Below, piece by piece: positions 39,836 through 42,114 of a DNA stretch of 64,000 bases. Position 1 is the first letter of the stretch; every line of letters begins with the position of its first letter. The notes beneath the pieces were generated by a model, which saw only the letters and a list, made by a program, of their open reading frames with translations, had not been told where the DNA came from and did no database searches. Where the stretch lies: contig JBBDYQ010000010.1 of NCBI GenBank assembly GCA_040901445.1, positions 1 through 64,000 on the forward strand, in the 5' to 3' direction. The translations under genes and the position numbers were made by a program. This DNA comes from Thermoleophilaceae bacterium (GTDB lineage: Bacteria; Actinomycetota; Thermoleophilia; Solirubrobacterales; Thermoleophilaceae).

Positions 39836-41368
39836 TCAGCGGCCATAGAGCAGCACCATGACGCGCTCGAGCAGCTTCGACCGCCGCGGCGTGTACGGGA
39901 AGAAGTAGAGCTCCCTCTTGCCGGCGAAGCGGGTGACCATCAGCGACTGCGTGCGGCAGTACTTCTGGATGCCCGCCGCGCCGTGGCGCACGCCGATGCC
40001 CGACTCGCCGACGCCCCCGAACGGCAGCTCCTGCGCGGCGTAGTTGCTCACGCAGTCGTTCACGCACGCGTTGCCGGCGTCGATCCGCCGTGCGATGGCC
40101 TCGCCCTTCTCGAGGTCCTTGGTGAAGACGCTCGAATTGAGGCCGTAACGCGAGTCGTTCGCGAGCTCGAGCGCCTCCTCCTCGTCGCGCACCTTCATGA
40201 TCGGGAGGATCGGGCCGAACGTCTCGTCGGTCATGACCTCCATCGAGTGGTCGACCTCGGTGAGCACGGTGGGCTCGAAGAAGCGCCCGCTGCCCTCGCG
40301 CGCCTTCCCGCCCACGCGCACCGTGGCGCCCTTCTCCAGCGCGTCCTCGAGGTGGCGCTCCATGATCTCGAGCTGCGGCCCGAAGGTGACGGCGCCGACG
40401 TCCACGCTGCCCTGCGCACGCGGCTCGCCCTGGCGCAGCGCGCCCGCCTTCTCGATCACGCGGGCGACGAAGTCGTCGTAGACCGGCTCCTCGACGTACA
40501 CGCGCTCGACCGCCTGGCAGATCTGCCCGCCGTTGGACATGCTCCAGTAGACCGCGGTGTTGGCCGCGCGCTCCACGTCGGCGTCGCGCAGCACGATCAT
40601 CGGGTCCTTCCCGCCCAGCTCCAGCGACACCGGCGTGAGCGACTCGGCCGCCTCCGCCATGATCTTCCTGCCGGTGGCCGTGGAGCCCGTGAACATGAGC
40701 ATGTCCGCCTGGCCCACGAGCGCGGCACCCGTCTCGCCGCGGCCGGTGACGACGATGAAGACGTCCTCGGGGATGCCCGCCGCCTTCATGCCCTCCTGCA
40801 TCAGCAGCGAGGTGAGCGGCGTGACCTCGCTCGGCTTGAGCACGACGGAGTTGCCCGCCATGAGCGCGGCGATCGCGTCACCGAAGGAGTTGGTGAGCGG
40901 GTAGTTCCACGGCCCGATCACGCCCACGACGCCCATGGGCCGGTAGCGCTTGACGAACCTCTTGCCGAAGAGCAGCGGCGAGTGGCTCCGCACGCGCTCG
41001 TCCTTGAGGTACCTGGGCGCCGACTTGGCCCAGAAGCCGAGCGAGTCGGCCACGAAGAAGATCTCCGCGAGCATGGCGTCCTCACGCGTCTTGCCGGTCT
41101 CCTCGACGATCGTGGAGACCATCCGGTCGCGATTCTCCACGAGCCACTTGCGCGCGGCTTTCATCACCTCGCCTCGGCCGTCGTAGCCCATCGCCTCCCA
41201 GCCGGGCTGCGCCGCTCGGGCGCGCCTGACGGCGTCGGCCACCTGCCCGGCCGAATGGTCCGGCACGTGCGCGACAACCTCGCCGGTGGCCGGGTTCTCG
41301 ACGGGTATCTGCGCCGCCCCGGCGGCGCCGTTCTCATGGACTGGCGGCGTGGTCTCGACGGTGGACAT
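39836..41368 (-). CDS. aldehyde dehydrogenase
   Basis: 510 aa NAD(P)-dependent ALDH. Motifs: GPWNYPLTNSFGDAIAAL, FTGSTATGRKIM, catalytic Glu in LELGGKDPMIVL, catalytic Cys in GGQICQAVERVYVEE, and TDETFGPILPIM. The C-terminus (FFPYTPRRSKLLERVMVLLYGR) recalls fatty-aldehyde or succinate-semialdehyde members. ATG 41368 has a strong ribosome binding site (AGGAGG, 4 bases upstream), unlike the leaderless genes around it. Substrate undetermined. Confidence 0.92.
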   Translation of the reverse strand: MSTVETTPPVHENGAAGAAQIPVENPATGEVVAHVPDHSAGQVADAVRRARAAQPGWEAMGYDGRGEVMKAARKWLVENRDRMVSTIVEETGKTREDAMLAEIFFVADSLGFWAKSAPRYLKDERVRSHSPLLFGKRFVKRYRPMGVVGVIGPWNYPLTNSFGDAIAALMAGNSVVLKPSEVTPLTSLLMQEGMKAAGIPEDVFIVVTGRGETGAALVGQADMLMFTGSTATGRKIMAEAAESLTPVSLELGGKDPMIVLRDADVERAANTAVYWSMSNGGQICQAVERVYVEEPVYDDFVARVIEKAGALRQGEPRAQGSVDVGAVTFGPQLEIMERHLEDALEKGATVRVGGKAREGSGRFFEPTVLTEVDHSMEVMTDETFGPILPIMKVRDEEEALELANDSRYGLNSSVFTKDLEKGEAIARRIDAGNACVNDCVSNYAAQELPFGGVGESGIGVRHGAAGIQKYCRTQSLMVTRFAGKRELYFFPYTPRRSKLLERVMVLLYGR

Positions 41369-41691
41369 CCGGCCTCCTGAAGGGATCTGGCGCAATCCGC
41401 CTGACACGGTGTCAAGCGGGCGAGCCGCCGAGTCTACCGAGCCCGCGATGCCGACTGGCCGCGCGGCCAGTTCGGGGCGGCCGGCCACCATCGCGCCGCC
41501 GAGAGGCGAGGCACGGGTTCCCCTCCCAGAGCCCGCTGGGGATTGTGCGCACAAATCGTGCGTGGGAGGCAACGGACATGCGTGGCACGCACATTTGTTG
41601 CGCACAATCCCGAGCGACGTTTTACGGGCACACACGGACTCTGCCCGTCGACCGGGGGCGAGATCCGGCAGCCGGAGGCCTTCACCTCGCG
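41369..41691. other. 323-base intergenic region
   Basis: Separates the divergent aldehyde dehydrogenase and XRE regulator genes. It contains the ALDH ribosome binding site at its left edge and the large inverted repeat at 41541-41609; otherwise I see no reading frame with a credible product. Confidence 0.6.
41541..41609. repeat. large inverted repeat with two TTGTGCGCACAA-like palindromes
   Basis: Arms 41541-41564 and 41586-41609 are near-perfect reverse complements (one inserted base in each), 21 bases apart. Each arm contains a smaller palindrome: TTGTGCGCACAA (41543-41554) and TTGTTGCGCACAA (41596-41608). Paired operator-like sites about 80-150 bases upstream of the XRE regulator gene. 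Confidence 0.7.
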
Positions 41692-42114
41692 ATGAGCCTG
41701 TACCAGTTCGAGAAGAAGCCCCACGGCGCCTTCCGCGGCGGCGAGTTCCCCTTCGACAAGCGCTATCTGGAGGTCGCCGTGGTGGTTGGGGACCGCATTC
41801 GCCGGCTCAGGCTGGATCGGGACGTGACGTTGATCGACCTGGCCCGGCGGGTGCGCAAGCCGGCCGGAGGCGGCTACAGCGCCAGCTACTTCTCCCGGCT
41901 GGAGCGAGGCTGGGCCAACGCGCCGCTCTACACCTACCACCAGATCGCCCGGGCGCTCGAGGTCGATCCCTGGATCCTGTTCGCCAGCGACGAGGCCCGG
42001 CACGACCCGAACCCGGGCGAGGTCCTGCTGCTGCGCTTCCTCAGGCGGGCCGGGATCGCCCCGGACGACGCGCTCGCGCGGATCGTCAGTCCCGAAGCTC
42101 GACCCGCTCGATGA
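41692..42114 (+). CDS. XRE-family helix-turn-helix regulator
   Basis: 140 aa. The HTH lies at about residues 30-90: [23 protein letters not shown], then [34 protein letters not shown]. The N-terminal part ([19 protein letters not shown]) is unusual. ATG 41692; a GGAGG sits rather far upstream. The large inverted repeat upstream is a candidate autoregulatory operator. 3' end overlaps the convergent cyclophilin gene by 29 bases. Confidence 0.82.

What the first reader, a model, noticed from the sequence alone, without database searches (positions are those of the whole stretch)
41541..41609. Large inverted repeat made of two TTGTGCGCACAA-type sites upstream of an XRE regulator
24-base arms separated by 21 bases, each with its own palindrome, lie in the only gap over 300 bp. 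Two spaced sites suit cooperative or looping repression of the XRE gene or of the divergent aldehyde dehydrogenase.
Basis: inference. Interest (0 to 1): 0.55.

Follow-up and report, generated by a model that had tools for sequence, protein, structure and literature searches.

The report
Dispersed palindromic operator arrays of XRE regulator
A long palindrome beside a small gene regulator in this bacterium is one of five matching copies in its genome, and related bacteria carry their own differently spelled sets beside the same regulator gene, which suggests a regulator and a scattered set of binding platforms that change together.

Summary
The inverted repeat is real, but it is not a local oddity. 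It is a 73-bp element (41539-41611) with perfect 13-bp inverted ends, and one of five copies in this genome. The four intact copies have exactly the same length, invariant ends (26 of 26 columns), GCA/TGC triplets every 10 bp (11 of 12 invariant) and a variable remainder (8 of 35). No match to its sequence was found in the other genomes searched, but related genera carry the same architecture in other letters. A dyad element lies just 5' of the XRE gene in 9 of the 11 closest XRE homologues (one doubtful, one without). Genomes G015, G022, G014 and G010 also have their own dispersed sets. Inside 23 elements I count 62 exact CAA-N5-TTG dyads (0.4 expected); 85 of 88 spacings are 12, 20, 32, 40, 52 or 60 bp. 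In two congeners the elements sit at orthologous places (XRE, eno, HAD genes), yet each genome has its own end sequence. Best reading: multi-dimer operator arrays of this XRE protein, autoregulatory at its own gene and dispersed as a small co-evolving set. Binding is inferred. Chief rival: a REPIN-like mobile repeat, but no RAYT-type transposase was found.

The parts
41539..41611 (.). 73-bp palindromic element, one of five copies in the genome (symmetry extends to CTG...GAG, 41536-41614)
41539..41551 (+). left terminal inverted repeat GGGATTGTGCGCA, identical in all five copies
41599..41611 (-). right terminal inverted repeat, identical in all five copies
41549..41561 (.). operator position 1, GCACAAATCGTGC (GCA-N7-TGC; CAA-N5-TTG with two mismatches)
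   Evidence: binding inferred
41569..41581 (.). operator position 2, GCAACGGACATGC (one mismatch to CAA-N5-TTG), at the dyad centre 41575
   Evidence: binding inferred
41589..41601 (.). operator position 3, GCACATTTGTTGC (one mismatch to CAA-N5-TTG)
   Evidence: binding inferred
41692..42114 (+). XRE-type regulator, 140 aa, Pfam HTH_31
39836..41368 (-). divergent aldehyde dehydrogenase (neighbour; no evidence that it belongs to the system)

Best explanation
The element is a multi-dimer operator array for the XRE protein encoded 80 bp downstream. The protein would bind as dimers to palindromic 13-bp sites (CAA-N5-TTG class; GCA-N7-TGC in this genome) set two helical turns (20 bp) apart, so that 3 to 6 dimers lie on nearly one face of the DNA between genome-specific inverted ends. 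The copy before the XRE gene would give autoregulation; the other ~4-5 copies per genome, all intergenic, would form a small dispersed set where the bound array represses the next promoter or blocks passing RNA polymerase. Shown: the copies, invariant ends, lattice, position before XRE genes, and three shared sites in two congeners with genome-specific ends. Inferred: that this XRE protein is the binder, that binding is cooperative, and the transcriptional effect.
For: Five copies with identical ends, the four intact ones of fixed length. A dyad element 5' of the XRE gene in 9 of 11 of the closest XRE homologues: 7 by score alone (17-25, against at most 15 for 78 other genes), 2 by ends shared with other copies of the same genome. 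Own dispersed sets in G015 (5), G022 (5 plus a fragment), G014 (4) and G010 (at least 4 counting two XRE copies). In 23 elements, 62 exact CAA-N5-TTG dyads (shuffled mean 0.4, max 3), with 85 of 88 spacings at 12, 20, 32, 40, 52 or 60 bp. The dyads were found without using that motif. XRE, eno and HAD sites are orthologous in G022 and G014, each with its own genome's ends. The protein carries an XRE-type HTH.
Against: No binding data. In the window's own copy none of the three positions is an exact CAA-N5-TTG. One XRE homologue (G016, L061) has no element and one (G025, L057) only a doubtful one. G006 (L058) has a dyad element but no exact CAA-N5-TTG. The set of neighbouring genes is not shared between genera, apart from XRE and a loose eno neighbourhood. 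Four of 18 copies lie between converging genes (two of these calls weak), where no promoter is expected. Fixed length with invariant ends is also what REPINs show. Whether genomes without the XRE gene lack such elements was not tested.
Confidence: 0.66

Rival explanations
1. REPIN- or MITE-like non-autonomous mobile repeat: the inverted ends are recognised by a transposase, the interior needs only length and hairpin capacity, and the XRE gene is a bystander.
For: Invariant ends, exactly constant distance, variable interior and intergenic placement match the REPIN anatomy in PMC3116915 (section 10 part 1 read: invariant 16-mers 71 bp apart with a length-constrained spacer). Some copies lie inside operons or between converging genes. 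Strong predicted hairpins, -32 to -50 kcal/mol.
Against: No Y1_Tnp (RAYT-type) protein in the genome, while the control rings in 5 of 14 named genomes. Only about five copies per genome. No target-site duplication of 5 bp or more in the five own copies; longest flanking direct repeat 4 bp, once. Sites conserved between congeners while the ends differ. The XRE-type operator lattice and the position at XRE genes are unexplained.
Confidence: 0.22
2. A structured RNA, terminator or attenuator hairpin in transcripts.
For: Very stable predicted folds; copies often lie 12-130 bp after a stop codon.
Against: No Rfam match above gathering score. The base-paired partners change from copy to copy, whereas many small dyads in direct 20-bp register are constant. 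No T-run was seen after the element (read by eye).
Confidence: 0.06
3. A purely local operator pair of the XRE gene or of the divergent aldehyde dehydrogenase, as first proposed.
For: Position between the divergent starts.
Against: Four more copies elsewhere in the genome; relatives keep the element with the XRE gene but not with the dehydrogenase.
Confidence: 0.06

Closest known systems
Stoperators of Cluster A mycobacteriophages (L5 clade repressor; PMC6550527, passages read)
   Same: One repressor gene with a binding site upstream of it, plus a set of dispersed sites, many not at promoters; site motif and repressor diverge together between genomes.
   Different: There up to 30 short 13-bp sites lie mostly in one orientation in a phage genome; here about five long symmetric multi-site arrays lie in a bacterial chromosome. 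No relative of this XRE protein was found in IMG/VR. Elongation block here is untested.
REPINs / REP-RAYT systems (PMC3116915, section 10 part 1 and passages; PMC3733652, passages)
   Same: Invariant inverted ends, constant length, variable palindromic spacer, intergenic copies, one copy near a partner gene.
   Different: The partner gene is a small HTH regulator; no Y1 transposase family protein found; few copies; an internal operator lattice.
XRE/C-protein autoregulatory operators and roadblocks (Kpn2I controller protein, PMC6237814, title and start of abstract in a search listing only; 434 repressor operators recalled)
   Same: Small XRE protein, palindromic sites with half-sites one turn apart, site at its own gene.
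   Different: Three to six sites in a rigid lattice with long inverted ends, and dispersed copies.

Membership tests
XRE autoregulatory operator | XRE-type HTH protein encoded next to the site | tested here: met
   HTH_31 in 10 of 10 homologues; element 5' of the gene in 9 of 11
XRE autoregulatory operator | palindromic sites with half-sites about one helical turn apart | tested here: met
   62 exact CAA-N5-TTG in 23 elements; only near-matches in the window copy
XRE autoregulatory operator | binding of the protein to the site | not testable with these tools
   needs EMSA or DAP-seq
REPIN / REP-RAYT | two invariant inverted ends at constant distance with a variable spacer | tested here: met
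REPIN / REP-RAYT | RAYT (Y1_Tnp) transposase in the genome | tested here: not met
   PF01797: 0 matches in G000; control rings in 5 of 14 named genomes
REPIN / REP-RAYT | high copy number (hundreds) | tested here: not met
   5 copies
MITE | target-site duplication | tested here: not met
   longest flanking direct repeat 4 bp in one of five copies
MITE | cognate transposase other than Y1_Tnp | not tested
   not searched
Stoperator | many short sites in one orientation relative to transcription | tested here: not met
   sites are symmetric, about five arrays per genome
Stoperator | bound repressor blocks elongation | not testable with these tools
   needs a transcription assay

The most novel reading that the evidence does not exclude
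A chromosomal regulator-array system in which a small XRE protein and about five dispersed, REPIN-shaped operator lattices form a concertedly evolving unit. The ends of all copies change together between species although the sites stay in place, so that either the protein drives the replacement of its own sites (homing or conversion) or the arrays serve as chromosome-scale roadblock or anchoring platforms.
Probability: 0.25. Interest if true: 0.82.

Novelty: new variant of a known kind. Interest (0 to 1): 0.62.

Why it matters
It ties a small uncharacterised regulator to a repeat family that sequence search alone cannot connect between genera, and gives an exact lattice (20-bp steps with a 12-bp central step) that can be tested by binding assays. 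The concerted change of the ends at sites that stay in place poses a clear evolutionary question: how do all copies of a chromosomal element switch sequence together? It is also a bridge case between repressor operators and REPIN-type repeats.

Tried and rejected
RAYT/REP family: no Y1_Tnp in the genome. Rfam: nothing above gathering score. Tyrosine-recombinase site: the only hit of the end pair in the collection of 84,980 species genomes was a Xenorhabdus contig with a XerC-like gene. Its relative in a Shigella plasmid shows a dif/cer-like site (recalled motif) without the 10-bp lattice, so I treat the shared end sequence as coincidence. Phage origin: no relative of the XRE protein and no matching element in IMG/VR. 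A four-operator lattice pattern hit two viral contigs, which turned out to be simple 20-bp tandem repeats without inverted ends. Plasmids and phages by blastn: only short matches with E-values of about 9-10. A structure model of the XRE protein alone had pLDDT 41 and was not used.

Mistake corrected: for two loci at contig edges (L058, L072) I first looked at the wrong coordinates; one search gives the right ones. For minus-strand loci I first took the element to be downstream; it is 5' of the gene.

Rows dropped: of 21 XRE rows I used the 11 best. Three of the ten weaker rows (L063-L065) were also scanned and showed no lattice element; the other seven were not scanned. One search used 23 elements and left out own C17 (assembly gap), the G022 C116 fragment, the second G010 XRE copy (L072), G006 (L058), G025 (L057) and the 19-bp G014 C81 match. 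Of seven relatives' XRE elements only two were searched as DNA for dispersed copies, and of the G022/G014 site comparisons only XRE, HAD and eno were made.

Full report
The observation. Its core is 73 bp, 41539-41611, with perfect 13-bp inverted ends. TTGTGCGCACAA itself occurs exactly once; the right-hand version has two mismatches.

It is a repeat family. A DNA search of the window's own genome returned further copies, the three best at 76-81% identity. The exact 13-mer GGGATTGTGCGCA occurs ten times in 3.54 Mb, always as an inverted pair. Four pairs span exactly 73 bp (contigs C10, C15 twice, C2) and the fifth (C17) is interrupted by a poly-G/N/poly-C assembly artefact. Among the four intact copies, with one of them turned round, 26 of 26 end columns, 11 of 12 columns of the GCA/TGC triplets that recur every 10 bp, and 8 of 35 other interior columns are invariant. 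The letters are confined to this genome in everything searched: 1 of 61 genomes by blastn (own only), 1 of 232 of the order by the triplet skeleton with up to 2 mismatches (own only), 1 of 396 of the phylum by the end pair with up to 3 mismatches (own only), and none in the species-genome or viral collections by exact skeleton.

The architecture is shared where the letters are not. The XRE protein has matches in 19 of 61 genomes searched (own included) at E up to 0.001; with a profile, 13 of 399 genomes of the class at E up to 1e-12, 11 of them in the window's family. I examined the 11 best rows. In seven the 300 bp upstream hold a dyad with score 17-25, centred 69-129 bp before the start codon; 78 other genes of the same genomes, after setting aside nine that adjoin an element, reach at most 15. 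Two more (G014, second G010 copy) are recognised by ends shared with other copies of their genome. One is doubtful (G025) and one has none (G016). These elements do not align with the window's.

Each genome tested has its own set. Searching with the G015 and G022 elements gave five copies in G015 and five plus a fragment in G022, with weak matches in G010 and G014 that proved to be further copies, apart from a 19-base match in G014. All 18 copies examined for context are intergenic by my simple gene caller: 11 between co-directional genes, 4 between converging genes (two of these with weak gene calls), 3 between diverging genes. In G014 the truncated XRE gene was not called, so its copy is counted by other neighbours. 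Neighbours include argJ/argB, nadA/nadC, eno/ftsB, asparagine synthase and glycosyltransferase genes (my reading of the translations, not a family search).

The interior is an operator lattice. In 23 elements from seven genomes the dyad CAA-N5-TTG, the form of many XRE/434-type operators (recalled), occurs exactly 62 times, against a mean of 0.4 and a maximum of 3 in base-shuffled elements. Of 88 spacings up to 62 bp, 85 are 12, 20, 32, 40, 52 or 60 bp: a 20-bp lattice, with one 12-bp central step in the long G022/G014 forms. The window's own copies keep the same register but weaker letters. With one mismatch allowed they have sites at the 20-bp positions (plus one off-register site in C2), and the window copy has two of the three.

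Concerted change. In the congeners G022 and G014 the XRE, eno and HAD-gene sites are orthologous and all carry an element, but the ends follow the genome, not the site...CCGATTCG in G022 (CCGACTCG in the left end of its eno copy)...CCGACTYAG in G014 (CCGAGTTAG in one end of its nad copy). This argues against plain insertion history and for co-evolution with a trans-acting factor, or for replacement of copies.

Mechanism. I take the array to be bound by several XRE dimers on nearly one face of the DNA, autoregulating its own gene and acting at the dispersed copies as a repressor or roadblock. Precedents: dispersed repressor sites that block elongation in mycobacteriophages (PMC6550527, passages) and an XRE-type controller protein reported as an elongation roadblock (PMC6237814, listing only). 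Not shown: binding, cooperativity, effect. The REPIN comparison is close in anatomy (PMC3116915, section 10 part 1) but lacks the RAYT family here and the copy number, and does not explain the lattice or the XRE position. No target-site duplication of a MITE was seen.

Literature. Searches for Thermoleophilia with palindromic repeats, XRE with dispersed palindromic intergenic operators, Solirubrobacterales with inverted repeats, XRE with REPIN and XRE operators with 20-bp cooperative inverted repeats gave nothing describing this in their listings.

Noticed in passing
L008 1529-1693 (own genome C17:51647-51811): The fifth copy is broken by poly-G, ten N and poly-C, as if the hairpin had stopped sequencing reads; similar artefacts may hide palindromic elements in other draft genomes.
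   Followed up: no
L048 1-115 (Xenorhabdus lircayensis NZ_JACOII010000002.1) and L049 2501-2616 (Shigella plasmid NZ_CP055112.1): A roughly 100-bp imperfect palindrome with arms resembling dif/cer (recalled) beside a XerC-like recombinase gene; in the Xenorhabdus contig a CHC2-primase-like gene lies next to it.
   Followed up: partly
L161 2540-2610 and L162 8671-8741 (IMG/VR contigs): Exact tandem 20-bp repeats holding the CAA-N5-TTG motif, without inverted ends; unrelated to the XRE elements as far as seen.
   Followed up: partly
L107 3080-3162 (G015) and L111 3058-3198 (G022): Elements lie in the same csrA-to-eno neighbourhood in two genera but in different intergenic gaps.
   Followed up: partly
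L055 and L072 (G010): This genome has two XRE paralogues, each with its own upstream element; copies C122 and C93 share the short TACGACAACG ends.
   Followed up: partly
L004 about 1640-1720 (own C2): GC-rich tandem repeat (unit about GCCGGGCCCGAGCGGCTGAGCG) shortly after the C2 element.
   Followed up: no
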